IMG/VR virus record: IMGVR_UViG_3300006789_000022
Location: 1 to 61,800 of that record
Strand: one strand, 5' to 3'
From: a virus
Length of the DNA stretch: 61,800 nucleotides
Position numbers and translations under genes: made by a program. Of the stretch, positions 35,301 through 50,605 are shown one piece after another. The notes under the pieces were generated by a model that searched no databases, was not told where the DNA came from, and was given only the letters and a program-made list of their open reading frames with translations. Each line of letters starts with the position of its first letter. The first letter of the stretch is position 1.

Positions 35301-36551
35301 CGGAAGCAACACGCCGCCGACATCATCTCGGCCACCGCTCAGTCATACGCCCGTGCTCTCCCAGTCATCAAGAAGATCAGCGGCTCGGGGTTCGGCCTCC
35401 TCTTCGCACCGTTCATCCGGTTCACGGCAGAGGTTCCACGAATCGCGGTGAACACGTTCACGCTGGCGCGTAAGGAGATGAAGGATTCCAATCCAGTCAT
35501 CAAGGCCCGAGGGCGGAGACGCATGACGGGCTTCAGTGCCGTGGCGATCTTCTCCACTGCGGTCCCCGCCATGCTCCAGAAACTCCTGTCCGACATGGGC
35601 GAGGACGAGGACGAGGCGTTCCGTATGTCCCTCCCCCCTTATCTCAGAAATCATACTTTCTATTACTTCAGGGGGGACAGCGCCATCGCCAAGGCAGCGC
35701 GTAAATTGTCAGGGGGCAAGGAGGGAGACCTCACCACGTTCGACCTCACCTACCTGAACCCGTTCGCCGTGATCGCTGACCCGTTCCTCCGTGGGATGGA
35801 GCACCTCGTGAGAGGGGAGCCGATGGTCGCAGCCGAGAAGATCGTGACGACCGCGTTCCTTGAGCCATACCTCGGGGACCAGATCCTCGCCGGATCTATC
35901 GTTGACGTTAAGGAGAACCGAGACGCCAGATCAGGCAGGCCGATCTACGAGGAGTCTGACCCGCTGTGGAGGAAGCTCGGCAAGATGAGCCTCTACGTCG
36001 GCAAGGAGGCTTACGGCCCACGGACCCCGATGAAGTTTCACGAGGCGTGGAAATCGGCTGGGGGAGAGGTGAACAAGTTCGCCGACTCGCCGTTCGGGAT
36101 AATCCTGAGTGAGTTTTATCCGGTAAGGCCCCGCTCAAATGACCCAGCCGACCAGTTCTCTCGGGTCGTATACCAACTGAGGGACGAGCAACGGCGCGTC
36201 CAGCAGAGGTTCAACAAGCTCAAGCAGTCCAAGGGCATGGGCGAGCGAGAGGTCAAGGCCATCCACAGGGACATCAGGAAGTCCCGCATGAGGATCAACA
36301 GCAAGTTGTCTCAGGCCATGCGTGGGTTCAACGGACTCGGCGTCAACAACTACGACCTCTACCAGCAACTACGCGGGGCGCGATACGGGGAGCGGAGATC
36401 CAAGCTACTCTTCTCAGGGTTCATGGAGAATCCGGTCCCGACCACTGACCTCGTCGAGACCCTGATGCGGACGCCACAAGGACAGCAGCGGCTCAGGTGG
36501 CTGATGGAGGAACACTCGGAGAACCCAAGGTTCCTGAAGCTGGACGACTAG
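20367..36551 (+). CDS. Giant polyvalent protein (5,394 aa) with SGIT-punctuated modules
   Basis: One uninterrupted frame covers 26% of the window. Segments in order: N-terminal helical part with Gly/Ala-rich hydrophobic stretches (about 520-800) that could insert in membranes; a zincin-like HELIH at 1694-1698 with Glu1778 downstream; a degenerate EEIAH at 2027-2031; a kinase-like module (Lys2258, NWDVVG, Asp2345-Asn2346, Asp2359 in HVDTGG); a region with NFYKN and VTVDMW motifs (about 2670-2830); two ADP-ribosyltransferase-like modules opening with YHGT at 3602 and 4030; a charged coiled region; an LPD38-like C-terminus from about 4800. Eight SGI(T/S) motifs (Ser 879, 1429, 2213, 2461, 2594, 3330, 3891, 4259) lie between modules. 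It is probably packaged and injected. Processing at these sites is my inference. Confidence 0.85.
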   Translation: MSEQTDTPTVNTLGFSEWSTENVYADPLESRLKFGDYVREEFIKADAYTPDVETGVRQGLADMLREGGLLEPDGANAEELAQRMEDIQRGKTFDQLARTFQQSLPEHGEDQRTLDNYFAAAVESPSPEYAEELQPLREKAGDVVNRNRDQLLRVKVDAGELPMARLSNGQLIVGEAAARMDLVDAIKASSEGGVAMGDALAAQAQLETPDGFSIPLYRIQRLARATRLLEVERKQNEDFDIQLDGLSTEAAQSEYSTMDWLEHKADNLGRGISNFFGRIMGQGEDIDKAEERREAVNEARGSDIRQIAAKYALKFDMRPEDMELAVEQMVLDNAVNKQMFEFHDADDDDVGKNLRIGGYGLPTMSVQAMINKDVFDKTLAANPELSGEVKTMLNKQRISHLRSEFTQLDKFLSDYGSSVSDEWNKALIAGRTAGVEDYKILEGFVADKDNYNEFAERAAGIGMSFLNGVGQLFAAIPAAFGFDPAQDYLASVSQKNADRRQLAAVFGEEFGLLQDAAETAFPMLIDIGATVLLAAATAPAGGAGGVAYASLKAGGTATASMTAKGMFKSITSNVFRKTGAKSTVAQAEDLLEASLIKGTKEGAVDILNAYNSKLSAHLGNLPAIFIPAATRSGSATYGAVYNQLKQDPSVSEEDAHDRALGAMLMAGTFTGVLTAAFSTIGRGGVEDALLKGLSYKQMKRAGEEITGKLGGDFLSAAQKAIKTTMKKYSFGGVKGLAKNVFDEGVEESIDEFVNGLVTDAALHEDTPMLERLQQTWHAFVLGGIMGGSVPLVQRTFRALQPDVLREREKTSFYEDVLEEMSADLTANGAPVTAQYVNMVVSDMRRKDARASVIPSLEEQEAELGRREPEATEEGTQLPSGITPDPEMEALLEEKVNPDSAARAVNNVLGSSVPAVAGADPTTVEAKGNLMHQLELPVQEAGALENSDHQAVRNLIPRRTEGVEPDVFEGTRPPKKKAIIDPARAEEAEAIEVGFRETVRQIDEAEALYKKMDQQVAGAEVAGESSVRRALEQRVREGKAVSPEQAIELRGEAFKDRVLALKDLKVEQKLESPETRLAALYEQEYAQTEERQREEDFRDNFGPEDLETGAMRQNNTVAVDGIIRSGFPQVLTVAKLKRLGIPFNQDTTSAVFLREANHQIQRQISEAYPKLPVTRPEGGFALDSAYGQGKVFLDRVGRGQFNNDPLTMLSLLETGASIVVDPAHLDSPTLNPAFRFARVGDNVVVSDIMVPESGGLVSALTPTDRALVLQPDYTRVVDLVERVLTLRDEGLREPDAVIDSPFEPNTQTTAQEVLTQLEEGVGIDKFVTPNTGELAPEFAESAQIELRLRAQEALFTDGKVSLVGLGREVADTYMAEQTARLKHSKESFVASVSVNEAADLQADPDYNAASEVEDTYTPFPENAPPPFPESGISNLLNEAHADAVAALDGDSNLRQSVVLLVQNEVFNTSSIDFNRTSTKRLWSYVVQWMAQGNHKTSPASIEFQKALKGRRFEMGTPVREALQLMALSSASVEGTPKTDAAYRAFLRDKIRGLKGGAEPSDAEVFSFHNYVRGSVGALLLRSQPSGMSKAHDQKTNKKAIAALGLKDGDPESIIEALERIVGVSDRAQKEYDSHLVSIARLLLQSPDFIRSIELSIDETDLNYAGKFDTLTDGTPAISININGHNPRGVADTLVHELIHAYVTGVTRKPAAQQTRQEAAAIGLLEGVIADIRADFKAISNQETTPVVFSQRAVPSVMGRGRVYKYHDTRVYDALANVDEFVAHFLTSTDFQKFVKTMLADRNAPALYSRFEQVVAAIRSFFLGANPEFDSAFSAVLDLSHSSVLAAGPRRRSRRKLISVEEFLTLPNKESRTAKDFVADSVFPTDPATNSTTSKEPVTTESIVGKIAEDVSRSQQEAVRLSSGVQGATGVDVDAQQRGRANVERLLSLIRNRIVPPEMRMEVDTSKRSVDADGNMVAPPMMYVDSNTGTLIVNPLELSGLLKEFQANNGGRPLSIRTQMNITAVIANEEIAHAASVATITKAERDELINGMTFADAEETVSNYGDEGNVGNRERLLEGWRNGDPAAQREIVEERLRQHAQKVTRGFTTEEEIAFLRRNPNLVQQIIRYFQRFLKKLGYYRSRRDISPQMRTAVDRVVNEIRALEAGYRYSTNLKPFDPNNPESVIEQFRKQANMNKPIERADEPREAEPAMAASGITAQVPADAGEVIDARGWTKVGRQLGSNMGGVYEDGEGNKFYFKESKSPEHARNEVLATILYETAGADILPIRLATGKNAAGEDVLGTASEWREDFTDFDPQDPAMRKAAFPDFAIHAWLANWDVVGLVYDNLMVDGEGNVVHVDTGGALKFRAQGEPKGGAWNEGGSEFATLRVMGQAGEVFGGMSTTDLQNSANELRKMSDDVIRSAVERVMGVGADGTDMANTLIARRNNILNVAFGEGQFVSSGITAGRDVQQQAGVTRGGLNSFAQKVETGVVSASMAADTLASLPNSDRNRATELLHKRTKFMRALWAALGLSQDTFQDRQTRLSNFRRALNRRADDLDATTQKQQTPVIGDDVRKFDPVDRQAAKELSRGLASGITVGDFDFDGVFPEGLEYDRFEDGRFRGTPLRKFQEGMLSEGEKPSEDPLTEKDVEELEERLKKLTVEGEVGRYWYEDAAKKILEITNGNVVEAEKLIALLAIYSPQTGVQVNTYFAIRGYEQHANKVSRKDYKVKTAVQDNKARAVLYDNRDWVGRKTDNFYKNIMFHIVQEATPEQLRAMRIDTAFLEDIQQPVTVDMWVYRALGYDTIGLTDKEGKGPFGFSEKMINRLTYSLNQNLAEGEPRYEAHQVQAMIWTAIKARSENKAVKKKTEAESIAAGDLVRRGKERIFVRRKVIKMVKGEETEVMSDAPSERDHQRRWTENALAATGVDFVEASRSFDYFVNSMGLLATWEVIASEQTEMGKRLAAMSIDEKRSFTEQAMRLIIDPTTGEDLLAKELGIALSTSKISTGGYAGGVTPNVLSTLYPNKPADVGGKETYDDDAIRAYARSLQYIFMQDAVPWARFVKHTKQDVFYKVSKRGTTSRGGVRFETQEEAEKFAASENAKIDTGKVVKVEDGEGYQIQNKKDKPYKLRSKETKKMEETPVFVPTVTEDPDLTEQQRIDKADKEAREAAESFRRDNLMHIIGGNNQSHGFHLTFGENLTESKEQEIQDFLTSVHPDFGFTKVGANEIVVINYKMDYMGMLPVLTDGVFAAKINQQYGQEAELAEITTVGEYGYHDWGSDSAAEGIFSLSTRFTPAVQQRLRGWRQGFQRISAQRVTTQPHAQIFRLASGITARRGDEDYGLASEAMLQAFEPRRDRDRESALSERGSLDERREEWAIEEAAKLHRVVSAQKKSLQAGGPPMASVHDIKLIAADRGFNDEVTEIYLEYLSVKRTIARLDKAHRIDDLTTTEEATELLVGEGHGDADVKRWRAIDKAAPEIDGAAIGAFQSLTFTEWEAAKGGWAGRSGVDIDPDTGKQEPPSWLDRVKMAPQIAKKARIKVRNLHARLQEIDQEFFELERRRKEADTALLSGVATRAKIDSLQNELILEVARLRGYAPSLYHGTARRLSIQALFDKFGISHVRLMPLHPEIPQHPDRKVKIVMRKGYDPAEVPTVVRDSIDEFVHEHKFDHRYPFEVYKGATGEHYTPATGLIFLSPRQSHAHGFAMAKAGHINRKIAGAGSRMRVTEDLILPTFVKVDKIFDPRKDWRLVEDVLNRLRRKRHLMGEDVWMETELDKPFHLPSKAERQGLTDAADRADEQAADYYRLINGKWDWWERPEVVDAVFDLGFDAMLVSESPDSHGVQSDGRMNLAVRDPEKLKTAHPRTYDRDGNLIPPSKRFDESKDAHMYSGITTQFGWTGDEELTAEQTKELGEIQKEHDSILNEYKHILDKGSQAWRGDGGRHRRNVLTGLSRTEEVHQGYRWDFMGEDDLGFGFTPDPEQYEENAGQFGAVPEMGIANVTIAEIAARLQPLVNRAAEIAGWSHRHMYHGTSYAEQPAGELPFWKEQPEPHRPTFGTFDPTKSDYAGPKGLVFFSPKVHRAEEFIGMQEGGGGHAIIPVVTKADMNIFDPRTNWEEFVDVIVMYHALEYLGPEAEGMTDEEIVQRFIDDNTAKGKAGEAFTDQSMNRIKTGNWIYWEKPLVVDAIMAKYDGMLVSEPVTFSKEQLDEAGLVKDEHMNLALRNPSLVKSVAPITLDSKGEIVPLSERFNPASPAFIHSGITFGDASDLPSEFNSEGVDYSQFIEVLEMPFIEKGPFQKVKGTWRKLFKGETDPTVQRYVRQRDAFLRTNDKIVEEYHSKYKSALEKDFPNPDDIPWDDIQAATGTTDNIDPDPDNVLLDARNKEKDAAHAQYQADLATEYAKHKQAEDAEKAKIATEPDPDKRKTLYRAAADARRAKQKASKAALGTTKGAADEAAQQKYEDAKDKSFETKKADMIKDRNEAFDRLRSTAPSLFPVLLDLRRLTDELSAQAKSLFGVFSAKDLSVKFDNNMGLYVTRRYHMFSDTDYVERILRSEATNDKAVRDAAIDFMRDQFIKFEFDRFKQDGRSDADALAAAEAKYDSRERGGQSLGYQMARDFLQSFDTDTGPMDFASAFDFAGKPASLPARLSDSLKALTKNLEGRAEIPKPLADLMGANNVPEDSIDSLLYTLGTVSKIAAHQSFLNKMRQQGEVDGWLMTNQQKKDAEKKAKTKEEFDRISSMKPIVSSGADSGLNPLAGMWVDRDVHDDIQPMFQQTVREPNDASSRVLHNAMTYAQKATGFAMAAKTLGSVGFYLRNMLSNVLFFGPAQGYWGAGKSLISGDPTEGTGMSAVMATGRAFRGNAARSSAYLRELEALGVFGDEVRSEIMLKLMRGEETFASLESQLQDLNKRAATIKGAKALQSIQNTAARLGSAMDSFYKIGYFEHELAVIEEAAKHEEETGMPKKDRKYSLMEPYQRKQHAADIISATAQSYARALPVIKKISGSGFGLLFAPFIRFTAEVPRIAVNTFTLARKEMKDSNPVIKARGRRRMTGFSAVAIFSTAVPAMLQKLLSDMGEDEDEAFRMSLPPYLRNHTFYYFRGDSAIAKAARKLSGGKEGDLTTFDLTYLNPFAVIADPFLRGMEHLVRGEPMVAAEKIVTTAFLEPYLGDQILAGSIVDVKENRDARSGRPIYEESDPLWRKLGKMSLYVGKEAYGPRTPMKFHEAWKSAGGEVNKFADSPFGIILSEFYPVRPRSNDPADQFSRVVYQLRDEQRRVQQRFNKLKQSKGMGEREVKAIHRDIRKSRMRINSKLSQAMRGFNGLGVNNYDLYQQLRGARYGERRSKLLFSGFMENPVPTTDLVETLMRTPQGQQRLRWLMEEHSENPRFLKLDD

Positions 36552-36737: not shown

Positions 36738-36947
36738 TTAATTTTTGTGGATAACGTCGGTCAGTCTGATGGCGATATTGTATTGGGCCTTGGTGTCTAG
36801 GATCGGGGAGGCGGGTAGGATCTTGTCACCTATGATCGGATACAGTTTACAGGTTTCAGGGTCCACCGGATCATCGTCGAAATACTCACCCTGAATCATC
36901 ATGGGCATTCCGTTCGGGAAGAACTCTCGGACTATCTGTCTATACAC
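36738..36947 (-). CDS. Small protein downstream of the helicase, 69 aa
   Basis: A 69-residue protein (MYRQIVREFFPNGMP start) with an acidic centre (FDDDPVDPE). It overlaps the end of the helicase gene by eight bases and is therefore translationally coupled to it. It may be a helicase accessory subunit. No motif is recognised. Confidence 0.5.
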   Translation of the reverse strand: MYRQIVREFFPNGMPMMIQGEYFDDDPVDPETCKLYPIIGDKILPASPILDTKAQYNIAIRLTDVIHKN

Positions 36948-38238
36948 CGTGCAACTCGTTGAGGTTGGACAGGCGGCGATTGATCGAGCGCATCACATGC
37001 TCCTCGATGGAGTCCGTTGCGACCAGCACCTGCTGGAGGGCGTCACTCTTACCACCGTTGCGGTGGATGCGACCGAGCACCTGCTTGTAGATCTTGCAGT
37101 TGAAGGTGGGCGAGATCAGCGCCACGCGTGGGCGGTTACCAATCGTGTCGTGCAGGGAGATCCCCGTCCCACCAGCCGCAGCATTGACTGCGATGCAGTG
37201 AGTCTGGTCAGCTTGGAAATCGTCGATAACCTGCTGACGATCTTCGTCGGACTGCCGACCGTCGATCCGATCACACTTCAGCCGGAGCCGGAGAGCGTCG
37301 ATGGTGTCACTGTAATTCACGAAAAGAACTACCGACTTACCCTGAGCCATGAGATCCTCTGCCATCTCGGCGAGATCCACAACCTTGAATGCCTCGGCCA
37401 GCCGACGGGCGCGGGTGATGTTGGCGAGGACATACTCGCTATCAGTCACGGTCCCCTTCTCGATGAAGTCCTCGATGATCTGGGGCGTGATGCCGAGGTC
37501 GTCGTAAGCCTTCTGGATCTTCTTGTTCTCCCTGAACTGGATCGGCTGAACGAACACACGGTTCTTCTTGAAGGAGTTCGGGAAGTCATCCACCGTGAGT
37601 CGGTGGGTGCTGGTCGAATACATCTGCTGGCGGAGTAGCGGGAGGTGGAAGGGGTCTTCCAGAATCCACGCCCCCCACTCGTTCTTCTCGCATCCGAACA
37701 TCCGCATCCACGGCCACCACCTCTTCAGCCCGTCCACCTTCTGGTCGCCGGAGTGCAGGCCGAGGGCGAGACCGAGGGGGCGCATCTCGGTGGGGTCTTC
37801 GCAACTGGTGCCGGACATGCTGTGAACCGTGTAGCCCTGCTTGATGAGGTTCACAAACAGCGCGGCGTTCTGGGTGAACGGACCCTTGCACTTGTGAACC
37901 TCGTCCACGAACACAACCGTGTCGGGGTCGATGAGCCACTTGAATGCTTTCTTGCCCACCTTGGAGACGTAACCAGTCTTACCCGTGCGAAGGGATTCAA
38001 GGTTAAGGATGAAGGTTGCAGTGACGCCCTCCTCCTCCAGTTCGGCCTTCCATGCAGGGATGACAGCCTTGGGGCAGATGACTGCGATGGGCTTGCCGAG
38101 GGCGGCTGCCAACTTGACTGCGACTACAGTCTTGCCAGTCCCCATGTCGGACTGGTCGAGGGTGGCGAGGCCAGCCACGAGGCGCTTGTAGAAGAAGTAG
38201 AATGTCTCCAGTTGCTTGGGGAAAAGGGTCTTGCTCAT
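36940..38238 (-). CDS. SF2 (SNF2-like) DNA helicase/translocase
   Basis: A 432-residue superfamily 2 ATPase with both RecA-like lobes: Walker A DMGTGKT (Lys36), motif II VDEVH (112-115), motif III SGTS, and in lobe 2 AAAGGTGISL and QVLGRIHRNG. It should move on duplex DNA using ATP, in replication, recombination or protein displacement. A sigma70 promoter lies upstream, giving a leader of about 24 bases here rather than a leaderless start. Confidence 0.9.
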   Translation of the reverse strand: MSKTLFPKQLETFYFFYKRLVAGLATLDQSDMGTGKTVVAVKLAAALGKPIAVICPKAVIPAWKAELEEEGVTATFILNLESLRTGKTGYVSKVGKKAFKWLIDPDTVVFVDEVHKCKGPFTQNAALFVNLIKQGYTVHSMSGTSCEDPTEMRPLGLALGLHSGDQKVDGLKRWWPWMRMFGCEKNEWGAWILEDPFHLPLLRQQMYSTSTHRLTVDDFPNSFKKNRVFVQPIQFRENKKIQKAYDDLGITPQIIEDFIEKGTVTDSEYVLANITRARRLAEAFKVVDLAEMAEDLMAQGKSVVLFVNYSDTIDALRLRLKCDRIDGRQSDEDRQQVIDDFQADQTHCIAVNAAAGGTGISLHDTIGNRPRVALISPTFNCKIYKQVLGRIHRNGGKSDALQQVLVATDSIEEHVMRSINRRLSNLNELHGV

Positions 38239-38268
38239 TTAATAGGTAGTCAGTTTTAGGATGCGAGT

Positions 38269-38297
38269 AGTATAGCAGGTGAGTTGAATAGCGTCAA
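38269..38297 (-). promoter_or_regulatory. Sigma70 promoter for the SF2 helicase
   Basis: TTGACG (38292-38297), 17-base spacer, TATACT (38269-38274). The spacer end CACCTGC and -10 match those before the gene at 47544. Unlike the others, the start codon is 30 bases beyond the -10 box. Confidence 0.7.
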
Positions 38298-38323
38298 GGA
38301 CATTATGATATATTTTTGGGAAG

Positions 38324-38395
38324 GCCGCTCAGGTGTTTCATTGGGAACTAGCTAATCCCGTTGCAGGTTCTCCCTGCACACCATGCCTGAGCGGC
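38324..38395. ncRNA. Structured three-way-junction element (unidentified)
   Basis: Perfect 10-bp arms GCCGCTCAGG (38324-38333) and CCTGAGCGGC (38386-38395) enclose two smaller hairpins: GGGA/TCCC (38343-38359) and TGCAGG/CCTGCA with a 5-base loop (38362-38378). The 72-base element lies between a membrane microprotein gene and the helicase promoter. It lacks tRNA T-loop and anticodon features and has no T tract, so it is neither a tRNA nor a simple terminator. It could be a riboswitch-like leader, a processed small RNA or a protein-binding element. The strand is undecided. Confidence 0.5.
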
Positions 38396-38400
38396 TAAAA

Positions 38401-38514
38401 TTATTCGGCTAAGAATTCAATCAGGGCGAGACCCGCGTGGATCAGGAGTAGTGTTCCAACGAACGCCAACATGGTCAAGGTGGCGGCCTCGTAAAGTGCT
38501 AGTTCTTTTTTCAT
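38401..38514 (-). CDS. Single-pass membrane microprotein, 37 aa
   Basis: Thirty-seven residues starting MKKELALYEAATL, with one hydrophobic helix (residues about 12-34, LTMLAFVGTLLLIHAGLALI). It starts one base after the stop of the gene before it (TAA C ATG), so it is coupled. It probably sits in the inner membrane. Function unknown. Confidence 0.5.
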   Translation of the reverse strand: MKKELALYEAATLTMLAFVGTLLLIHAGLALIEFLAE

Positions 38515-38515
38515 G

Positions 38516-38671
38516 TTAAAGCGCGTTATCAAATTCGACTTGCTCTCTGACCTCTGAGATCCGGCATCCGAAGCTGAAGTCCAGTTCGCCGTTCTCTTCC
38601 GCCTCGGTGAGAAGTGAGAGGATGGTTCGTGCTTGGGTCTCATTGTCGGTATTGATAGTCAAGGTTGCCAT
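38516..38671 (-). CDS. Small acidic protein, 51 aa
   Basis: Fifty-one residues (MATLTINTDNETQARTIL...), acidic, with a strand-helix pattern. An alternative ATG six bases upstream (38677) would give MDMATLT. The gene sits in a three-gene operon (38844 to 38401) with very short gaps. No family recognised. Confidence 0.5.
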   Translation of the reverse strand: MATLTINTDNETQARTILSLLTEAEENGELDFSFGCRISEVREQVEFDNAL

Positions 38672-38688
38672 GTCCATTTGTTTGGGGG

Positions 38689-38844
38689 TTACAGTTTCTT
38701 GAGCAAGTAGAGGATGGCATCCACCCTCGGCTTGAGTGTGGCATTCTCTTTGGCGATGGCCTCCAACTCCTCCTTGATGACGTAGTGGGTTGATCCCTTA
38801 CGCATCGAGGGGAGCCATTTACGGACATCAATTATTTCAGCCAC
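38689..38844 (-). CDS. Small basic helical protein with leaderless GTG start, 51 aa
   Basis: The start is taken as GTG at 38844 because a consensus TATAAT ends exactly six bases before it; the frame stays open upstream through the promoter to other ATGs that would not be on the transcript. The 51 residues (VAEIIDVRKWLPSMRKG...) end in a Leu-heptad helix (LEAIAKENATLKPRVDAILYLLKKL), probably a dimerisation coil. It heads a three-gene operon. Function unknown; a small regulator is possible. Confidence 0.55.
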   Translation of the reverse strand: MAEIIDVRKWLPSMRKGSTHYVIKEELEAIAKENATLKPRVDAILYLLKKL

Positions 38845-38850
38845 GACGTA

Positions 38851-38878
38851 ATTATACACATTTCTAACAGAATGTCCA
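38851..38878 (-). promoter_or_regulatory. Sigma70 promoter, leaderless GTG gene
   Basis: TGGACA (38873-38878), 16-base spacer, TATAAT (38851-38856), six bases, then GTG at 38842-38844. The spacer holds TTCTGTTAGA, which contains the TCTAACAG octamer that also repeats in the control region at 50.8 kb, so this promoter may be regulated by the same factor. Confidence 0.65.
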
Positions 38879-39098
38879 ATGGTTTTAATCATGTGTTTAT
38901 AAAGTAAAATGTGAGGAGGGATTACTTTTGTTACCCCCAACTTTCGCCGTCCAGATAAAGATCATTTAGGCTACTCGCGCTCTGCTCTCTCTGCTCAGTC
39001 AGTTGACCCTTGCTCAAGATACAGACACCTTTAGGCTCTTGGATTACACCTATGTTCAGTCACTCACGATTGGGGAGCTACCCCAAAGATTAAAATTG
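38879..39098. other. Gene-free stretch with a small hairpin
   Basis: No supported gene. A short hairpin TTGGGG/CCCCAA (39070-39086, 5-base loop) lies just beyond the stop of the gene at 39099. It may mark the end of that operon, although no T tract follows on the minus strand. A short minus-strand frame ending at about 38941 (LTEQREQSASSLNDLYLDGESWG) has protein-like composition but no ATG or GTG start. Confidence 0.4.
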
Positions 39099-39497
39099 TT
39101 AGATGCTATAATGCTTACGGACTTCTACTTCAGCTTCTTCGTAAGTCAGGCCGCTCTTCTGGGCCTTCCACATTGCCTCCCATACTTCGTGCATGTGGTA
39201 GTGCATGAGGGACCGGATGGTCTGAGGGATCTCCTCGTTATCCCGATAACTATTTTTGAAGTTATCATAGTCGATCTCATCGACCGCCACCCCGATGGCG
39301 TTGGTCACCACAGGTTTGTGGAGGCTGACCCTGAATCGGTAGTCGGCGTCGGGAGTCTCCTCGACCTTCAGCCAAGGTAGGAGCGCATGGAAGAGGCGCT
39401 CCAAGTCACCCTTCATCCGAGCACGGACGAGCAATTTCGTGGAGTCGTTACGGTCCTCCACGATGGAGACGAATCCTTTGTTAGTGAATACCCACAT
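39099..39497 (-). CDS. Unknown phage protein, 132 aa
   Basis: A 132-residue protein starting MWVFTNKGFVSIVED, with a beta-rich N-terminal half (KLLVRARMKGDLERLF) and a helical acidic C-terminal half with a His/Trp-rich patch (MHYHMHEVWEAMWK). The start at 39497 is one base after the stop of the alpha-CTD-like gene, so the two are coupled; a longer frame would overlap that gene. No function assigned. Confidence 0.6.
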   Translation of the reverse strand: MWVFTNKGFVSIVEDRNDSTKLLVRARMKGDLERLFHALLPWLKVEETPDADYRFRVSLHKPVVTNAIGVAVDEIDYDNFKNSYRDNEEIPQTIRSLMHYHMHEVWEAMWKAQKSGLTYEEAEVEVRKHYSI

Positions 39498-39498
39498 G

Positions 39499-40401
39499 TT
39501 ACTGGCCCCTCCCTTCGTTGGAAATGTCTTCCAGTTTCTGGAGCTTATTACGGACATCCCGTCGGTAATCCGATTGCTGTTTCAGAATCTTCTTCCGGTT
39601 CTTCCTGTAATAGGCCCGCGCATATGTGGCGTTCTTTCGGAGGATATCCTGAGCATCCGAGGTGGCCTCCTGCTCACGCTCCCCGTCGGGCCAGTCGAGG
39701 CCGAGGGCGTTGAGTCCCTCCCTCACATCGTCCAGAGATGCCGTCCCGAAGTGTGGCAGGCTGAGAAGATAGTCAGGGGTCTGACTGATCAACTGCCCGA
39801 GGTTGCAGATGTCGGCATCCTCCAATGCGGCGGTAGCATTCTTGCGGAGGTCGAGCCTACGGATGGAATCGTAGAGAGACGTTGCCCTCACGGCGGGGTC
39901 AGGTTCCTCGTCATCCCATGACTCGATGTTCTCGGCGAAGAGATCTGCGAGGAGGGGAGGTTGAACTTCCTCTTCCTCTTCTTCACGGTCGTCGATGGGG
40001 GCCGCGATAACCTCCGCGAGGGTGGGGACTTTCTCTTCTGACTCGTCAACAGAAACCGGATGCCACTCGGCAGTAGTGTAGGTTTTCCCCTCTCCCGCCG
40101 GAGTGTAGGTGCTTGTCGGCTTGGCGAACAGATCCGAGGAACGCTCGGTCTCGAAATTTTCGAGGGCCTCCTCAAGATGAGCCTTCTTCGCCTTGAAGCC
40201 CATGCCCGTCACATGGTTCAGGTGATGATCACGGAGTTCCGTGACGAGCCTGTCGGCGGCCTCGCGCTCGGTGAGCAGCATGTTTTTCATGTCCGCGAAT
40301 TTCTCACGGGACTCCAGTTGTTCGTCAGTCAGGCTCAAGAGCAGATCAAGACCAGCTTGAGTGTCCTTGAGGAAGGACCGGATAGATGTGGTGTTTGCCA
40401 T
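39499..40401 (-). CDS. Protein with an RNA polymerase alpha-CTD-like domain
   Basis: A 300-residue protein. Residues about 178-236 read like the C-terminal domain of bacterial RNA polymerase alpha: SIRRLDL, then ALEDADICNLGQLISQTP, LPHFGTASLDDV and LNALGL, the same order of helices as the host domain. The N-terminal half is helical with an acidic stretch (EEEEEEV), and the C-terminus has a basic helix (AYYRKNRKKILKQQ). By alignment the main UP-element arginine (Arg265 in E. coli) is not kept. It may redirect polymerase or bind promoter DNA. It starts leaderless behind a strong promoter, so it is probably made early. Confidence 0.7.
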   Translation of the reverse strand: MANTTSIRSFLKDTQAGLDLLLSLTDEQLESREKFADMKNMLLTEREAADRLVTELRDHHLNHVTGMGFKAKKAHLEEALENFETERSSDLFAKPTSTYTPAGEGKTYTTAEWHPVSVDESEEKVPTLAEVIAAPIDDREEEEEEVQPPLLADLFAENIESWDDEEPDPAVRATSLYDSIRRLDLRKNATAALEDADICNLGQLISQTPDYLLSLPHFGTASLDDVREGLNALGLDWPDGEREQEATSDAQDILRKNATYARAYYRKNRKKILKQQSDYRRDVRNKLQKLEDISNEGRGQ

Positions 40402-40407
40402 GATGAT

Positions 40408-40436
40408 ACTATAACAGAGGGGTGGGATTTAGTCAA
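40408..40436 (-). promoter_or_regulatory. Sigma70 promoter, leaderless alpha-CTD-like gene
   Basis: TTGACT (40431-40436), 17-base spacer ending CTCTGT, TATAGT (40408-40413), six bases (ATCATC), then ATG at 40401. Same cassette as before the genes at 41585 and 43746. Confidence 0.75.
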
Positions 40437-40478
40437 CAACTTTCTGCAAATAAATTAAGCGGCTGTTAACTGGAAACT

Positions 40479-40565
40479 TTATTTTTGAGTTAAGCTCTCC
40501 CGCTTCCGCCGGAGAACGAGGAGCAGGACGATGGGGACAAGGATCAGGAAGAGGGTTGCAGTCAT
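40479..40565 (-). CDS. Membrane microprotein, 28 aa
   Basis: Twenty-eight residues starting MTATLFLILVPIVLLLVL and ending in a basic tail RRKRESLTQK: one transmembrane helix with an inside-positive end. It follows the zinc-ribbon gene by 11 bases. Small size lowers confidence, but membrane peptides of this type recur in this phage (38401, 52678). Confidence 0.4.
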   Translation of the reverse strand: MTATLFLILVPIVLLLVLRRKRESLTQK

Positions 40566-40576
40566 GGTGTTTGGCG

Positions 40577-40882
40577 TTAGTCAATCCGAGCCTCGGAAAG
40601 TTCGTGCTCGCCACCGTCTTCATCGAGCACGGTGACGGTGGTGCTTTCGGGTGAGGTGGCAACCACCACTCCCCAAGTGCCGCCGTCGAAGGTGAGTTCG
40701 ATAGGGGTGGGGGGTTCGGGTTTGCACATCGCGGCCAAGGCTAACCTAGCCGGAAGAACAACTATCGAGTTACATGTGTCGCAACACTGGCCCGAGTCGA
40801 ACGGCCTCACTGGCTCGGGGTTGTTGCCCCACCCTACGAAGTGGTCGCCACAAAGGACACACATCCATGATTCGTTTTCCAT
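40577..40882 (-). CDS. Zinc-ribbon protein, 101 aa
   Basis: A 101-residue protein with an N-terminal zinc-binding box: Cys8-x2-Cys11, GWGNNPEPV, then Cys33/34-x2-Cys37, and NSIVVLPARL. Small phage proteins of this CxxC...GNNPxPV...CCxxCN plan are common but uncharacterised. The second half is a small acidic beta domain (TTVTVLDEDGGEHEL). It starts two bases after the upstream stop (TGA TC ATG). Confidence 0.65.
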   Translation of the reverse strand: MENESWMCVLCGDHFVGWGNNPEPVRPFDSGQCCDTCNSIVVLPARLALAAMCKPEPPTPIELTFDGGTWGVVVATSPESTTVTVLDEDGGEHELSEARID

Positions 40883-40884
40883 GA

Positions 40885-41385
40885 TCAGTTAAGTAGAAGT
40901 TTCTTTTTCTCGTTACCCTCATCGTCCTCCTTGAGGACTATGTTCAGGCTCTTGAAATCTTCCCAGTGTCTCTCGTCCACCACCACGCGGTTACCTCTAC
41001 GGTCTGCTTCAAGCAGTTTGCTGGTGGCTGAGACCTCAAAGGAGTCAACCTCCTCGACGTTGCCGATGGCGTGGGTCAGGTCTACAACGTCTTGCGCCGA
41101 GACGTATCGCTCGCCACGGGGGGAGCCACAGTCACAGCCCTCAACGTCACACCGATCAGGGCGGACGGTCAGGACGAAATTGAGGGTGCCGCAATCATCG
41201 CACTCATGGAAATCTATGTCGTGCATTTGAAACCCTGCCTCATTGACAGTCGCTTCAAGTATGTCCTCCATGATACAGGACGGGTTCCTTGAGTTGGTTT
41301 CGTCAACCGGATAATCAGTGTCGATAGCACAACTGTTAAGCTCAAGGACGATGTTGAGGGAAAGGAACTCAGGTTGGAATTGCAT
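40885..41385 (-). CDS. Cys-rich acidic protein, 166 aa
   Basis: A 166-residue protein with a probable zinc site: Cys62-x2-Cys65 (ECDDCGTLNFVL) and Cys79, Cys84, Cys86. The rest is acidic, with SLNIVL occurring near both ends (residues 9-14 and about 145-150), which hints at an internal repeat. Its start uses the same TGA TC ATG junction as the downstream gene. Function unknown. Confidence 0.6.
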   Translation of the reverse strand: MQFQPEFLSLNIVLELNSCAIDTDYPVDETNSRNPSCIMEDILEATVNEAGFQMHDIDFHECDDCGTLNFVLTVRPDRCDVEGCDCGSPRGERYVSAQDVVDLTHAIGNVEEVDSFEVSATSKLLEADRRGNRVVVDERHWEDFKSLNIVLKEDDEGNEKKKLLLN

Positions 41386-41387
41386 GA

Positions 41388-41585
41388 TCAGGATTGGTTG
41401 TCGGGGTTCTCTAGTTCGTCGAACTCCTTGGCAATCTGGTGTGCGTCGAAGTCGGCGTAGTCTCGGGGTCCATCGTGCAGGGAGTCCTTGATGTCTTGCA
41501 GGACTCGGGACACTACCTCGGGCCTCGGTCCCTTGGGACGGGCAGCCTCGAAGAGGTCGGTGATGCTTTGGTGGATGCTTGGCAT
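41388..41585 (-). CDS. Small protein, 65 aa, leaderless
   Basis: A 65-residue helical acidic protein (MPSIHQSITDLFEAARPKGP start). It heads an operon of the genes down to 40479 and has its own promoter six bases upstream. No family recognised. Confidence 0.6.
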   Translation of the reverse strand: MPSIHQSITDLFEAARPKGPRPEVVSRVLQDIKDSLHDGPRDYADFDAHQIAKEFDELENPDNQS

Positions 41586-41591
41586 GGTGAT

Positions 41592-41620
41592 ACTATAACA
41601 GAGTGTAATGATTTAGTCAA
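41592..41620 (-). promoter_or_regulatory. Sigma70 promoter, leaderless
   Basis: TTGACT (41615-41620), 17-base spacer, TATAGT (41592-41597), six bases (ATCACC), ATG at 41585. The -35 box overlaps the stop codon of the upstream gene (Val-Val-Asp-stop coded by GTTGTTGACTAA). Confidence 0.75.
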
Positions 41621-41834
41621 CAACTTTCTTTGATTTATTTATTTCCGCATTGAGGGCGGCGTCAAATTCTTCCTCGCTCACGTTCTCAAGTGAGACGATG
41701 GGAGCACCAAGATCCCTGACTCCATCAGGGCGGGAGCCGTCTCGGCAAGACCAAGCTGTGCTCTTGCGCCCATCGTAGATGGTGGCCGTCCTATCGGCTG
41801 GGTTGTAGAAACCAAATATGTGGTCGTAGTTCAT
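41613..41834 (-). CDS. Small protein, 73 aa
   Basis: A 73-residue protein (MNYDHIFGFYNPADRTATIY) with a beta-hairpin-like start and an acidic helical end. It sits between the poly-Glu protein and the promoter at 41592. Its last codons form part of that promoter. No family recognised. Confidence 0.55.
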   Translation of the reverse strand: MNYDHIFGFYNPADRTATIYDGRKSTAWSCRDGSRPDGVRDLGAPIVSLENVSEEEFDAALNAEINKSKKVVD

Positions 41835-41864
41835 GGAGCGTTAAGCGGAGATTTTATTTTTGAG

Positions 41865-42200
41865 TTAAGCTCTCTCCCCATCGTTGATGTGGTCGTCGGC
41901 TCTCCAGTTGTCCCAGTCTTCCTTCGTCCACTCCTCTTCCTCTTCCTCCTCTTCCTCCTCTTCCTCCTCCTCGGCAGACAGGATCACGGTCTCCGCCTCG
42001 GCGAACGCCTCGCGTTTCTTCTCGGCTTGCTCGGCCTCGTGCTCCGCGATGTAGTCGCGCATGGAGGAGAGCAGGGCGGCCTCGGAGATGGCAACGTGGA
42101 TGACCATGTCATCCTCGTAGGGGAGGAGGTAGCGGAAGCCCATCTTGCGGGTGGCGAGGACGAACAGTCGCAGCCACATTGTCTGAATTAAATCTCTCAT
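41865..42200 (-). CDS. Poly-glutamate protein, 111 aa
   Basis: A 111-residue protein: N-terminal hydrophobic/basic helices (MRDLIQTMWLRLFVLATRKMGFRYLLPY), a middle helix, then 14 consecutive glutamates followed by Trp/Asp-rich residues. The start at 42200 follows the stop of the VWA gene by 22 bases; an upstream frame extension would overlap that gene. Strongly acidic tails often mimic DNA or bind basic proteins. Function unknown. Confidence 0.55.
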   Translation of the reverse strand: MRDLIQTMWLRLFVLATRKMGFRYLLPYEDDMVIHVAISEAALLSSMRDYIAEHEAEQAEKKREAFAEAETVILSAEEEEEEEEEEEEEEWTKEDWDNWRADDHINDGERA

Positions 42201-42222
42201 GGTAGTTTCTAATGGTTGAAGG

Positions 42223-43746
42223 TTAGCCGACGTTGATGGCGACTCTCTCGCCGAACGGGTAGCAGGTGACACCGATGTTCTCGGGGGCGTGGTAGCCGAA
42301 GCACAGCCACAGGATGGGGCAGTAAGGCTCCCTCATGTCGTCCCAGTCCCAGCGACAGGTGTAGCCGTCGGTCAGGAAGATGATGCCGTCCGCGTTCGGT
42401 GCGTTCTCCTCGGCCCAGTCGAGGGCTGGCTTGAGTTGAGTCCCGCCCCCGCCGCCGAGGGTCTCGGGGAGTTCGCCTCCAGCGTCCACCTCGTGGGTCT
42501 CGTGGACCCGAGTGTCGCAGGGGACGATGTGAGTGAGGCGGGGCTGGAACTGGTCGAGCACCTCCTGCACCTTGTCGAGCATCGGACCCATCTTGTGGAC
42601 GTTGGAGCCGGAGGTGTCCACGAGGAACACAAGCTCGCCAGCTACCTTGGAGCCACGGGCGCGGCGGACCACGCCAGTCCGGTCGAAGGTGCGAGTGCAG
42701 AGTGGGCGGTCCCAGCCTTCCTCGGAGCGAGCCTGAAACCAGTTGACAAGGTGCTCGTCCCAAGGGACACGGTTCGTGGTCCGCTTCAGGTCGCTCGATG
42801 CGAACGTCCCCGCGCCGGAGCCAAGACCCTTGGTCTCGTTCACACGCTCCTCGTAGGACGCCTGCTGGACAGCCTCACGGTTCGCGGAGTCGAAGTCCTC
42901 AAGAGTCTCACCGTCCTCAAGCTCAGGCTCGCAGAAGTCATCGTGACCACCACCGAACTCTCCGGTGGTTGCCCCATCCCCCGAGCCATCAGGGGATGAG
43001 GCTTCACCATGCTCGTCCGACTCGGCTCCACCCTTGCCGGACTCACCTTCCTGCTCACCAGAATCGTTCTCGTCGCCGGAGTCACCACCGTCCTGATCAC
43101 CAGCCTCGTCGCCGGAGTCAGGGTTCGGGGTGCCGGAGCCGTTGCCAGCCTCGTCACCTTCCTCGTCGGACTGCTCGGAGCCACCGCTGTTCACGTTCAC
43201 AGGAGGAACGGGGTGGGTCTTGAGGATCTTCTCGACGAGTTGCTCGGAGGACAGGTCTTCCTTGTCGGTATCGTATAAATCTTTTTCGTCGATAAGGATA
43301 TCTCCGAGGGGAGTCATCACATCGAACGGCTCAAGTCCGGCGTCGAACATGGCCTGACGGGCCTCGTTGTTGAGATCGCGGAGCCACGCGTTGATGATCA
43401 GGTCGCTCGCCACGTTGGCAGCACACCAGTTCTTTCCCTTCCAGAATATCTGAGCACCGACCTCACGGTAGCGGCGGAATCTCTCAGCGTGGTTGAGCAG
43501 CAGGTGGCAGTTCTCGTGACCGACAACGAACGCACAGTTGGAAGCCTTGAGGGTGTTCAGAACGGCGAGGTTGTAGTAACCGAACCTCCCGTCCATCATG
43601 CCATACTTGGTGGCAGTTGTGTGCTTCATGCCTCGGAGTGAGGCGCGGTAGAGGTAGCCGACCCAGTTGCGGAGGTCGCGGACTCCGACCTCGAAGGGGG
43701 TGGTCCCCCTTGGGTGAACGTCGATGAAGTTGGAAGTGGCAGGCAT
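42223..43746 (-). CDS. VWA-domain protein with N-terminal metallopeptidase-like domain (DUF2201 type)
   Basis: A 507-residue protein in three parts. Residues 1-170 hold HExxH (His77-Glu78-Asn79-Cys80-His81), as in the DUF2201 N-terminal putative metallopeptidase. Residues about 185-275 are a Gly/Asp/Glu-rich linker. The C-terminus is a von Willebrand A domain with the MIDAS motif Asp377-x-Ser379-x-Ser381 in FLVDTSGS. Such proteins pair with MoxR AAA ATPases like the one at 44799, two genes upstream. Together they probably remodel or unfold a host or phage target. It starts leaderless. Confidence 0.8.
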   Translation of the reverse strand: MPATSNFIDVHPRGTTPFEVGVRDLRNWVGYLYRASLRGMKHTTATKYGMMDGRFGYYNLAVLNTLKASNCAFVVGHENCHLLLNHAERFRRYREVGAQIFWKGKNWCAANVASDLIINAWLRDLNNEARQAMFDAGLEPFDVMTPLGDILIDEKDLYDTDKEDLSSEQLVEKILKTHPVPPVNVNSGGSEQSDEEGDEAGNGSGTPNPDSGDEAGDQDGGDSGDENDSGEQEGESGKGGAESDEHGEASSPDGSGDGATTGEFGGGHDDFCEPELEDGETLEDFDSANREAVQQASYEERVNETKGLGSGAGTFASSDLKRTTNRVPWDEHLVNWFQARSEEGWDRPLCTRTFDRTGVVRRARGSKVAGELVFLVDTSGSNVHKMGPMLDKVQEVLDQFQPRLTHIVPCDTRVHETHEVDAGGELPETLGGGGGTQLKPALDWAEENAPNADGIIFLTDGYTCRWDWDDMREPYCPILWLCFGYHAPENIGVTCYPFGERVAINVG

Positions 43747-43752
43747 GGTGAT

Positions 43753-43781
43753 ACTATAACAGAGTGTGATGGTTTAGTCAA
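43753..43781 (-). promoter_or_regulatory. Sigma70 promoter, leaderless VWA gene
   Basis: TTGACT (43776-43781), 17-base spacer, TATAGT (43753-43758), six bases (ATCACC), ATG at 43746. Confidence 0.75.
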
Positions 43782-43799
43782 TATCTTTCTGATCTTTTT

Positions 43800-44738
43800 T
43801 TAGACAAGCCCACTCGCGGCGAGCTTGTCCTCAAGGGCGGCGGTCACCTTGGTGAACTCCTCGGCCTTGTCCTTCCGCTCGACGGGGTCGAGTCCGACAA
43901 CGTCGAGTCCCTCGACGAGGCTGGCAGCAGTGGCCGCAGCAGTCTCCAGTTCGGGGAGGTCGAGCAGGTTCTTCCCGCGCACCTCGGCGACCAGTTTCTC
44001 CACGGTCTTGAACTTGTCGGCGCGGAGCCGAGTCTTCTTCCCGTCCTCGGTCTTGGAGTCGGCGGCGACGAGCCGCTTGACGCACTCACCGAGGGCGTCG
44101 AGCAGGGACTCGACAGGCTTGGCGTGGGCCGAGAGAACCTTGGCCTTGGCAGACTCCTCGGCCTTGAGCTTGATCCGCTGGACCGTCTCGGCCAGCACGG
44201 TATCGAAGATTTTAGAATCCGAGATAGTGGTCTCGATGTCGAACCCGAGTTCGCTCCGGCGGAGGAACCGATCCACTGTGGGATACTCCACGCCCTCTCC
44301 GAACACGAGCATCTCCTCCTTGCCCCGCTCCTTGAGAGCCTCCCAGTTGCGGCGGATCTCGGCGTTGCACTTGTCGATGCTGATCTTTGCAGCGTTGAAG
44401 ATCTCCTCGAAACGGTCGAAGTCCTGCACTCGACAGAGGTAGGTGTTCGGGCGGCCAGTCTTTGCCAGACCACGGTAGCCCCGCTTAGGGTCACCAGCCA
44501 CGATGTCCTTCTTGAACTGGTTGACGAAGGACCGCGCCGTTCCAATGGCAGTGTCGGTGGCGGGGAGGAAGCGGGAGTTCGCCGACAGGAGTTTCTTGAG
44601 TCCGGCCCTCTCCTCGGGATCGACCTGATCGAGCAGGACTTTCTTCGCGTTGGGGTTGGTCCCCGTGATCACGTAGGACGGGTTGGCGAGGTGGATCTCG
44701 ACGAGCGAGCGGAGGGAGGAAGATTTGATTTCGAGCAT
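43800..44738 (-). CDS. Helical protein between MoxR and VWA genes (DUF3150-like)
   Basis: A 312-residue, largely helical charged protein with long coiled stretches (residues about 185-300). Size, composition and position between a MoxR ATPase and a VWA/metallopeptidase gene match DUF3150-type proteins of phages and plasmids. It may be the adaptor or substrate-binding subunit of that complex. No catalytic motif is visible. Each of the three genes has its own leaderless promoter. Confidence 0.6.
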   Translation of the reverse strand: MLEIKSSSLRSLVEIHLANPSYVITGTNPNAKKVLLDQVDPEERAGLKKLLSANSRFLPATDTAIGTARSFVNQFKKDIVAGDPKRGYRGLAKTGRPNTYLCRVQDFDRFEEIFNAAKISIDKCNAEIRRNWEALKERGKEEMLVFGEGVEYPTVDRFLRRSELGFDIETTISDSKIFDTVLAETVQRIKLKAEESAKAKVLSAHAKPVESLLDALGECVKRLVAADSKTEDGKKTRLRADKFKTVEKLVAEVRGKNLLDLPELETAAATAASLVEGLDVVGLDPVERKDKAEEFTKVTAALEDKLAASGLV

Positions 44739-44744
44739 GGTGGT

Positions 44745-44773
44745 AGTGTATCAGATAGAGTTTAAGTTGTCAA
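44745..44773 (-). promoter_or_regulatory. Sigma70 promoter, leaderless
   Basis: TTGACA (44768-44773), 17-base spacer, TACACT (44745-44750), six bases (ACCACC), ATG at 44738. Second promoter class with spacer beginning ACTTAA. Confidence 0.75.
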
Positions 44774-44798
44774 CTATTTTCTTGGATAATTTTTAGGG

Positions 44799-46004
44799 CT
44801 AGGCGACGAGACCCTTCAGGTGGAGAGCAGATGGGTGGGCGAAGATGGGGTTGTCCCCGTCACCCTCGGGCTGAGTGTGAGCGGCGAGGGTGGAGAACAC
44901 CCACGCTCCAAGCTCGGGACTGCATCCCTCGAAGAGGTCGAAGGCCCAGTCCCACTGGCCGGAAGAGATGGCAGCAGGGTAGTCCTTGCCTCCCTCGTTC
45001 AGGGCGATGCGAGCGGCGGCGAAAGCCACGGCGGGGTGACGGTGCTTGGGAACCTCGGCCATAGTCTTGCGACCCTCGCGGACCTCGGTCACCTCCGGCC
45101 CGATCACGAGCACGGTCTTGATGAGGCTGACCATGTCATCGACTACGGGAGTCGGGATGCGGGATGCAGCATGGAGGGCGAAGAAGTCTACGTCCTTGAT
45201 GGAGTCCCAGTCGGGGAACATCCTGAGCACACCTTCCCATGTCCGGCCAGAGCACACGGCCCCGCCAGTGTAGCGGGACGGCTTGTCCTCGCCCTTGACC
45301 TTGCCAGTCCACGGGTTGAGACCCTCGCCCTGAGTCTCCACGCCTTGCCTGAAGAAGTTCAGGTAGGCCCAGACAGGGCTGCCCTTGAAGGTGGGGGCGG
45401 TGTGATTGAGGAAGTCATCGACCGAAAGTTCAAACCGATACTGGCTGCACCGTGCAGCGTCAGGCTGGGAGAGTTCCCGCCCGTTCTCAACATCGTCGAG
45501 CCGCCCGTTAAACGTGATCATAAACCTCACGTTAGGGCCGACCTTGTGGACCCCGATGTAGCGGTCCTGCCCGTCCGGTGCGTAGAGAGCGGGACGGTAT
45601 GCCTGCTTGATCTGGCCGGACGCGGCCTGCCACTCCTCCAGAATGACGAGGATAGGCTTGTCGCCCACGGTCGCCCAGACCGGAGCCTCCTCGGGCTTGA
45701 TGGACACCGAACGGTAGTCACCGTTGCCCTCGTGGTGAGGGACTTGGATACCACGAGCAGTCTCCTCGTGGACTCCGGCACAGTTGAAGGTGACGATCCC
45801 GCCCTCGTGGTTCGGGTCACGGGCATCAGCCCACGAGATGAACTGAGCAGGGATGCCGAGTTCCTTGGCAACCTCCTTGCCGGACGAGGACTTGCCTCCT
45901 CCGGTGGGGCCGCCGACTGCGAGGACCGAGCCGGAGCGTTCGGCCATTCGGGTTGCGGCGGGGACGCCGGAGAAGGAGAGTTTCGGTAGAGAAGTTTCAA
46001 GCAT
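44799..46004 (-). CDS. MoxR-like AAA+ ATPase
   Basis: A 401-residue AAA+ protein with Walker A GGPTGGGKS (Lys38), Walker B ILVILEEW (Glu123/124) and sensor-1 asparagine in MITFNGR (Asn166). MoxR ATPases act as chaperones that load cofactors or remodel protein complexes together with a VWA partner, here encoded two genes downstream. Its target in this phage is unknown; host RNA polymerase, replication proteins or a defence complex are all possible. Confidence 0.85.
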   Translation of the reverse strand: MLETSLPKLSFSGVPAATRMAERSGSVLAVGGPTGGGKSSSGKEVAKELGIPAQFISWADARDPNHEGGIVTFNCAGVHEETARGIQVPHHEGNGDYRSVSIKPEEAPVWATVGDKPILVILEEWQAASGQIKQAYRPALYAPDGQDRYIGVHKVGPNVRFMITFNGRLDDVENGRELSQPDAARCSQYRFELSVDDFLNHTAPTFKGSPVWAYLNFFRQGVETQGEGLNPWTGKVKGEDKPSRYTGGAVCSGRTWEGVLRMFPDWDSIKDVDFFALHAASRIPTPVVDDMVSLIKTVLVIGPEVTEVREGRKTMAEVPKHRHPAVAFAAARIALNEGGKDYPAAISSGQWDWAFDLFEGCSPELGAWVFSTLAAHTQPEGDGDNPIFAHPSALHLKGLVA

Positions 46005-46010
46005 GGGAGT

Positions 46011-46039
46011 AGTGTATCAGCTAGGTGTTAAGTTGTCAA
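46011..46039 (-). promoter_or_regulatory. Sigma70 promoter, leaderless MoxR gene
   Basis: TTGACA (46034-46039), 17-base spacer, TACACT (46011-46016), six bases (ACTCCC), ATG at 46004. An AT-rich block (AATAATTCAAGAAAACAT or close) lies directly upstream of the -35, as at 47574, 47877, 48252 and 49058. Confidence 0.75.
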
Positions 46040-46052
46040 ATGTTTTCTTGAA

Positions 46053-46280: not shown

Positions 46281-46300
46281 GATGGTAACTGGGTAAATGT

Positions 46301-46558: not shown

Positions 46559-46586
46559 GATGGTAACTGGGTAAATGTTTCTGGGG

Positions 46587-46871: not shown

Positions 46872-46899
46872 GATGGTAAGTGGGTAAATGATTCTGGGG

Positions 46900-47544: not shown

Positions 47545-47550
47545 GACGGT

Positions 47551-47579
47551 AGTATAGCAGGTGGTTAGAGAATTGTCAA
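47551..47579 (-). promoter_or_regulatory. Sigma70 promoter, leaderless (near-perfect consensus)
   Basis: TTGACA (47574-47579), 17-base spacer, TATACT (47551-47556), six bases (ACCGTC), ATG at 47544. It is the closest to consensus in the array. Confidence 0.8.
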
Positions 47580-47592
47580 ATGTTTTCTTGAA

Positions 47593-47847: not shown

Positions 47848-47853
47848 GATGGT

Positions 47854-48222: not shown

Positions 48223-48228
48223 GGTGAT

Positions 48229-50576: not shown

Positions 50577-50605
50577 ACTATACCAGAAAGGGGGCTTATC
50601 GTCAA
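50577..50605 (-). promoter_or_regulatory. Sigma70 promoter, leaderless, at edge of control region
   Basis: TTGACG (50600-50605), 17-base spacer, TATAGT (50577-50582), six bases (TTCACC), ATG at 50570. The first 29-bp dyad repeat lies 37 bases upstream of this -35. Confidence 0.75.

What the first reader, a model, noticed from the sequence alone, without database searches (positions are those of the whole stretch)
39499..40401. Phage protein with an RNA polymerase alpha-CTD-like domain, made from a leaderless early promoter
Residues 178-236 follow the alpha-CTD pattern (LDL..., ADICNLGQL, LPHFGTASLDDV, LNALGL). In bacteria this domain binds UP elements and activators. Several promoters of this phage carry a conserved AT-rich block just upstream of the -35 (AATAATTCAAGAAAACAT), where a UP element would be. 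A phage alpha-CTD mimic could redirect polymerase to those promoters or block host activators. The key host arginine is not conserved at the aligned site, so any DNA contact would differ.
Basis: partly seen in the sequence, partly recalled or inferred. Interest (0 to 1): 0.7.

Follow-up and report, generated by a model that had tools for sequence, protein, structure and literature searches.

The report
Phage mimic of polymerase alpha-CTD
An uncultured phage carries a gene for a protein whose middle part is a true relative of the bacterial RNA polymerase domain that grips promoters and activators, but the residues that grip DNA are gone, so it is more likely a decoy or adaptor for host transcription proteins than a promoter reader.

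Summary
The 300-aa ORF at 39499-40401 (-) has an alpha-CTD domain at residues ~171-236: Pfam RNA_pol_A_CTD E=1.5e-7; a profile of the phage domain retrieves only RNA polymerase alpha above noise in the PDB; the predicted fold matches alpha-CTD at Z up to 11.5. Two relatives in IMG/VR (53% identical overall) keep it. The promoter is real: TTGACT-17-TATAGT-6-ATG, one of at least seven such leaderless-looking promoters here.

The proposed function is only partly supported. All three phage domains lack Arg265 (Asn instead), which is kept in all 92 cellular alpha-CTD rows and the 3 other phage domains aligned; Lys291 and Lys298 are also replaced. The AT-rich block above the -35 also occurs at orthologous genes of sister phages that lack the gene, so it does not depend on this protein and is better read as an UP-like element for the host's own alpha-CTD.

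Layout: long N-terminal helix, acidic unstructured linker, DNA-blind alpha-CTD, strongly basic tail. My best guess is a decoy or adaptor that docks on host transcription proteins. Phage proteins annotated with alpha-CTD domains exist already; I found no tested function for one. The host is unproven (perhaps Planctomycetes).

The parts
39499..40401 (-). CDS, 300 aa, alpha-CTD-domain protein
   Evidence: orthologues in L002 and L003, tblastn E 2e-61 and 4e-55; 53% identity to each in the full alignment
40132..40401 (-). residues 1-90: long N-terminal helix (residues 2-63) plus a second helix; best conserved part; probable coiled coil
   Evidence: AlphaFold2 of residues 1-92, pLDDT 93-95 over residues 11-50; 51-78% pairwise identity
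39892..40131 (-). residues 91-170: acidic, Glu-rich, unstructured linker
   Evidence: mostly pLDDT under 50; net charge -7 to -19, 29-42% identity
39694..39891 (-). residues 171-236: alpha-CTD-like domain lacking Arg265, Lys291 and Lys298 equivalents
39502..39645 (-). residues 253-300: strongly basic helical tail (net +10 to +15)
   Evidence: pLDDT about 89-92 over residues 261-290; charge
40408..40436 (-). promoter of the gene: TTGACT (40436-40431), 17-nt spacer, TATAGT (40413-40408), 6 nt, ATG
40437..40461 (-). AT-rich block above the -35 (cgcttaatttatttgcagaaagttg), UP-like position
41592..41620 (-). leaderless-type promoter of the 65-aa gene
43753..43781 (-). leaderless-type promoter of the VWA/metallopeptidase gene
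44745..44773 (-). leaderless-type promoter of the 312-aa gene
46011..46039 (-). leaderless-type promoter of the 401-aa AAA/MoxR-like gene
47551..47579 (-). leaderless-type promoter of the 214-aa DUF6011 gene
50577..50605 (-). leaderless-type promoter of an 85-aa ORF

Best explanation
Shown: the gene encodes a member of the alpha-CTD domain family, set between a long N-terminal helix plus acidic linker and a basic C-terminal tail, under a strong sigma70-type promoter whose predicted start point is the ATG itself. Shown by sequence comparison: the domain has lost Arg265 and two lysines that hold DNA in the E. coli alpha-CTD. Inferred: it is made early, forms a dimer through the N-terminal helix, and offers two flexibly tethered alpha-CTD-like heads that do not read UP elements. 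The heads dock on proteins that normally meet the host alpha-CTD (an activator, sigma region 4, or the host alpha-CTD itself), while the basic tail holds the protein near nucleic acid. The net effect would be to keep host activator-dependent transcription from competing, or to bias host RNA polymerase towards phage promoters that carry their own UP-like block and good -35/-10 boxes. The phage would then stay dependent on host RNA polymerase.
For: Alpha-CTD family membership by sequence and fold. Loss of R265, K291 and K298 in all three members, while R265 is kept in all 92 cellular rows and 3 other phage domains aligned; R265/N294 enter the minor groove and K291/K298 bind phosphates in E. coli (PMC7822876). 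Conserved surface run QTP(D/E)YLL(S/T)L inside the domain, with an invariant Tyr at the position of E288, in the 287-determinant region. Modular layout and basic tail. No single-subunit RNA polymerase model was hit in the large ORFs scanned, so use of host polymerase is likely. Precedent that phages target alpha: T4 ADP-ribosylates Arg265 (PMC2988020); Rac of phiKMV-like phages causes alpha cleavage (PMC7552054).
Against: No binding partner was identified. The sigma-facing 261 determinant is not conserved in the phage domains, and the residues of the 287 determinant differ from those of E. coli, so contact with the usual partners is not predicted from residue identity. The basic tail could give DNA binding by another route. 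The dimer is assumed from a predicted single long helix only.
Confidence: 0.4

Rival explanations
1. The domain reads the AT block of the phage's own promoters: a phage alpha-CTD that recruits polymerase to them.
For: True alpha-CTD fold. The AT block is at the UP position in 19 promoters of the three phages that have the gene.
Against: R265, K291 and K298 are replaced in all three. The AT block is kept at orthologous promoters of G006 (MoxR-like, p312, VWA; 72-88% AT) and G003 (MoxR-like; 80% AT), which lack the gene. The DUF2800 gene promoter with its AT block is near identical in G000-G003 and G006.
Confidence: 0.12
2. A general nucleic-acid-binding protein of phage replication or genome handling. 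The basic tail binds DNA or RNA and the HhH-type domain is a structural or protein-contact module with no link to transcription.
For: Very basic tail (net +10 to +15). The gene lies in a minus-strand cluster with a helicase and an AAA/VWA pair. The Dmc1 N-terminal HhH domain also matches at Z 8.6.
Against: Sequence profile and top fold matches are to RNA polymerase alpha rather than to other HhH families.
Confidence: 0.3
3. [quoted passage not shown]
For: Alpha-CTD fold with acidic character (net -2 to -7); head-to-tail alpha-CTD dimer in PMC7822876.
Confidence: 0.15

Closest known systems
[quoted passage not shown]
   Same: Sequence family, predicted fold, a flexible linker before the domain
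   Different: No alpha N-terminal domain; Arg265, Lys291 and Lys298 equivalents lost; acidic domain; extra basic tail
Annotated phage alpha-CTD proteins (Bacillus phage Goe8 QDP42789, Microbacterium phage Mazun gp26, Ruegeria phage V16 gp23, Erythrobacter phage vB_EliS-L02 ORF40, Mycobacterium phage Mithril, Rhodococcus phage Finch)
   Same: Alpha-CTD-type domain in a small phage protein, function untested as far as I found
   Different: Goe8, Mazun and V16 keep Arg265 and Asn268 (the other three were not aligned); different flanking regions in those three; 26-31% identical to the window domain
Non-RpoA alpha-CTD proteins of Pirellulaceae (450-500 aa protein with two alpha-CTDs; 100-150 aa protein with one)
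   Same: Alpha-CTD outside RpoA; shares TP-D-x-LLS helix and FG-x-x-(S/T)L-x-(E/D)-V pattern
   Different: Cellular; Arg265 kept in all; no basic tail after the domain in the small ones
T4 Alt/ModA and phiKMV-like Rac
   Same: Phage control of the host alpha subunit
   Different: They act through ADP-ribosylation, or through cleavage of alpha, not through a domain look-alike

Membership tests
Alpha-CTD domain family (PF03118) | Significant match to the family profile | tested here: met
   E=1.5e-7 over cut-off; relatives E 1.5e-6 and 3.5e-5 per genome, the second below the curated cut-off; reverse profile to PDB alpha, best 9e-6
Alpha-CTD domain family (PF03118) | Alpha-CTD fold | tested here: met
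   Foldseek TMt 0.84-0.90 over 54-60 residues, about 1 A; VIA Z up to 11.5
UP-element-binding alpha-CTD | Minor-groove and phosphate contact residues R265, K291, N294, K298 | tested here: not met
   N; S/T/S; H/N/Q; A in the three phage domains
UP-element-binding alpha-CTD | Binds AT-rich DNA | not testable with these tools
   needs EMSA or footprinting
RNA polymerase alpha subunit (RpoA) | Alpha N-terminal domain and full-length RpoA match | tested here: not met
   only the CTD part of the rpoA models matches, far below their cut-offs
Phage alpha-CTD-domain proteins | Alpha-CTD domain in a phage-encoded non-RpoA protein | tested here: met
   window record is a virus record; similar annotated phage proteins
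Leaderless mRNA gene | Transcription start at the start codon | tested here: inconclusive
   -10 to ATG distance of 6 nt predicts it; no transcript data
Generic helix-hairpin-helix proteins | Better match to another HhH family than to alpha-CTD | tested here: inconclusive
   no other HhH family; Dmc1 HhH at Z 8.6; HHH_5 only weakly in L002

The most novel reading that the evidence does not exclude
A family of phage decoys built on the host polymerase alpha-CTD, with the DNA-binding face removed and a dimeric, tethered layout that imitates the two alpha-CTDs of RNA polymerase, so that host activators or sigma region 4 are captured away from host promoters.
Probability: 0.22. Interest if true: 0.75.

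Novelty: new variant of a known kind. Interest (0 to 1): 0.42.

Why it matters
Many phages are annotated with alpha-CTD-domain proteins, yet I found no tested role for one in the papers held here. This family is informative because it keeps the fold but drops the arginine used for UP-element binding, which points to protein contact rather than DNA reading and gives a clear bench test. If the decoy reading is right, it would be a way for a phage to silence host activators without modifying the polymerase, different from the ADP-ribosylation and cleavage strategies known.

Tried and rejected
PHROGs: no hit for the protein. tblastn of the whole protein against phages: none. IMG/VR scans with the protein, with the 3-row alignment and with the domain alone gave the same two relatives. 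GTDB genome scan with the alignment: none. Idea that the AT block exists only where the alpha-CTD gene exists: a PWM scan suggested this (0 hits in gene-less phages), but direct inspection of orthologous upstream regions showed the block and the 6-nt -10-to-ATG spacing with weaker hexamers in G006 and G003, so I dropped it. The PWM was trained on the gene-bearing clade, and these are two related clades, so the contrast is one event at most. Host: terminase relatives lie in MAGs of three different phyla (Blastopirellula 89%, Altibacter 78%, Opitutae 75%), so binning alone does not decide. The domain scores highest with a Pirellulaceae RpoA profile (35.1 bits against 19.3 for Opitutae RpoA), but the profiles were built from unequal numbers of distinct rows (14 against 3) and mean identity is only 36% against 30%. 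The N-terminal helix model was not searched against fold libraries, since matches of a long helix are not informative. Several 'phage' records with alpha-CTD hits (Salmonella, Acinetobacter, and many unannotated ones) carry or appear to carry bacterial rpoA, so I did not count them.

Full report
Observation. The ORF at 39499-40401 on the minus strand is open from ATG for 300 codons. The window is a virus record of 61.8 kb. Pfam gives one family only, RNA_pol_A_CTD, residues 174-231, E=1.5e-7, above the curated cut-off; NCBIfam rpoA models match the same stretch and nothing else of RpoA. A single-sequence search of the PDB puts RNA polymerase alpha first.

Relatives. Two other uncultured phages encode orthologues in the same gene order: L002 (record G001) and L003 (record G002), 53% identical to the window protein in the full alignment. 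Both match PF03118 independently when their whole records are searched. A profile made from the three domains alone retrieves 44 PDB sequences at E up to 10; the first 42 are RNA polymerase alpha, best 9e-6, and no other helix-hairpin-helix family appears. So this is the alpha-CTD family, not a generic HhH, by sequence.

Fold. AlphaFold2 with the three-row alignment gives pLDDT 82-87 across residues 181-230. Foldseek against the PDB lists alpha-subunit chains in the displayed top 50 (target TM-scores up to 0.84-0.90 over 54-60 residues, about 1 A, for isolated CTD chains). The VIA second look gives Z up to 11.5 for alpha-CTDs and 8.6 for the Dmc1 N-terminal HhH domain.

DNA-binding face. In the E. 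coli closed complex on rrnB P1, R265 and N294 enter the minor groove and K291 and K298 touch phosphates (PMC7822876). Aligned to 91 cellular alpha-CTD rows from Pirellulaceae and Opitutae plus E. coli, R265 is present in every cellular row and also in the phage proteins of Goe8, Mazun and V16; some rows are the same domain fetched twice. In the three phage proteins of this family it is Asn. K298 is Ala in all three, K291 is Ser/Thr/Ser, N294 is His/Asn/Gln, and N268 is Ala/Lys/Arg. K291 and K298 also vary in Pirellulaceae RpoA, so R265 is the telling loss. The sigma-facing 261 determinant is not kept either. A run QTP(D/E)YLL(S/T)L is conserved among the three phages in the 287-determinant region. 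The E. coli sequence used in that alignment, and which residues make up the 261 and 287 determinants, come from my own knowledge.

Layout. Residues 2-63 form one long predicted helix (pLDDT 93-95 over residues 11-50), the best conserved part overall (51-78% pairwise). Residues 91-170 are acidic and mostly of very low confidence. The alpha-CTD is acidic (net -2 to -7). The last ~48 residues are strongly basic (net +10 to +15) and helical. That the N-terminal helix makes a coiled-coil dimer is inference.

Promoter. The gene starts six bases after a TATAGT that lies 17 bases from TTGACT. The window has 8 such leaderless-looking sites with an ORF of 40 aa or more, against 0.8 expected in Markov resamples; G001 and G002 have 8 and 11 against 0.4 and 1.0. 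Transcription typically starts 7 or 8 bp downstream of the -10 element (PMC5101437), so the transcript is expected to begin at or next to the ATG, but no transcript data were available. The 25 bases above the -35 are 64-80% A+T in 19 promoters of the three phages, against 44% for the window.

Is the AT block tied to the protein? Sister phages G003 and G006 are 61-kb records with orthologues of the neighbouring genes at 37-80% identity but no match to the alpha-CTD protein or PF03118. Their orthologous genes still carry AT-rich blocks (72-88%) above a weaker -35 and -10: G006 at the MoxR-like, p312 and VWA genes with the same 17-nt spacer and 6-nt distance to the ATG, and G003 at the MoxR-like gene with a 16-nt spacer. 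The promoter of the DUF2800 nuclease gene, with its AT-rich upstream run, is nearly the same in all five phages. The block therefore does not need this protein. A UP-like element read by the host alpha-CTD is the simpler account.

What it does. I commit to a protein-contact role in host transcription (confidence 0.4). The strongest rival is a nucleic-acid-handling protein in which the alpha-CTD-type fold serves another contact (0.3). Pairing with the host alpha-CTD (0.15) and direct reading of the AT block (0.12) follow. No single-subunit RNA polymerase model was hit in the large ORFs scanned, so the phage probably uses host polymerase, which makes a transcription role reasonable.

Context. 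Phage proteins with an annotated alpha-CTD domain are not new: several are in BFVD by fold, in INPHARED by sequence, and in a published Erythrobacter phage (PMC9127768), there without a test of function. In Pirellulaceae, most of the 26 genomes searched carry four or more alpha-CTD domains, in a pattern that fits RpoA, a 450-500 aa protein with two, and a 100-150 aa protein with one. The Opitutae family searched carries essentially RpoA only. The window domain scores best with the Pirellulaceae RpoA profile and the closest terminase lies in a Blastopirellula MAG, so a planctomycete host is possible, but MAG bins of two other phyla also hold close terminases and the host stays open.

Verdict. 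Observation confirmed; first interpretation partly supported; new variant of a known but uncharacterised kind.

Noticed in passing
36940-52810 (-): A minus-strand gene cluster in which at least seven genes start six bases after a sigma70-type -10 box, suggesting widespread leaderless early transcripts; the helicase gene (36940-38238) is an exception, with its -10 box about 30 nt above the ATG.
   Followed up: partly
11175-12383 (-): The DUF2800/PD-(D/E)XK nuclease gene probably starts at codon 31 of the listed ORF, seven bases after a TTGACA-16-TATAGT promoter; that promoter and its AT-rich upstream run are nearly unchanged in four related phages.
   Followed up: partly
20367-36551 (+): A single open frame of 5394 aa. 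Pfam, scanned in two halves, finds only DUF7178 in the second half.
   Followed up: no
42223-46004 (-): An AAA ATPase (MoxR-like position) followed by a 312-aa protein of unknown family and a DUF2201 metallopeptidase/VWA protein, conserved in order in relatives; resembles MoxR/VWA pairs of bacteria.
   Followed up: no
L024, L025 (469-aa frame), L023 (176-aa frame) and the family of G011: Pirellulaceae genomes carry non-RpoA alpha-CTD proteins: a 450-500 aa protein with two domains and a 100-150 aa protein with one, in most of the 26 genomes searched; I found no paper on them in one search.
   Followed up: partly
L003:5700-5860: The relative's protein has a short tandem repeat (ENRKEEEE) between the alpha-CTD and the basic tail, a sign of a freely varying linker.
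   Followed up: no
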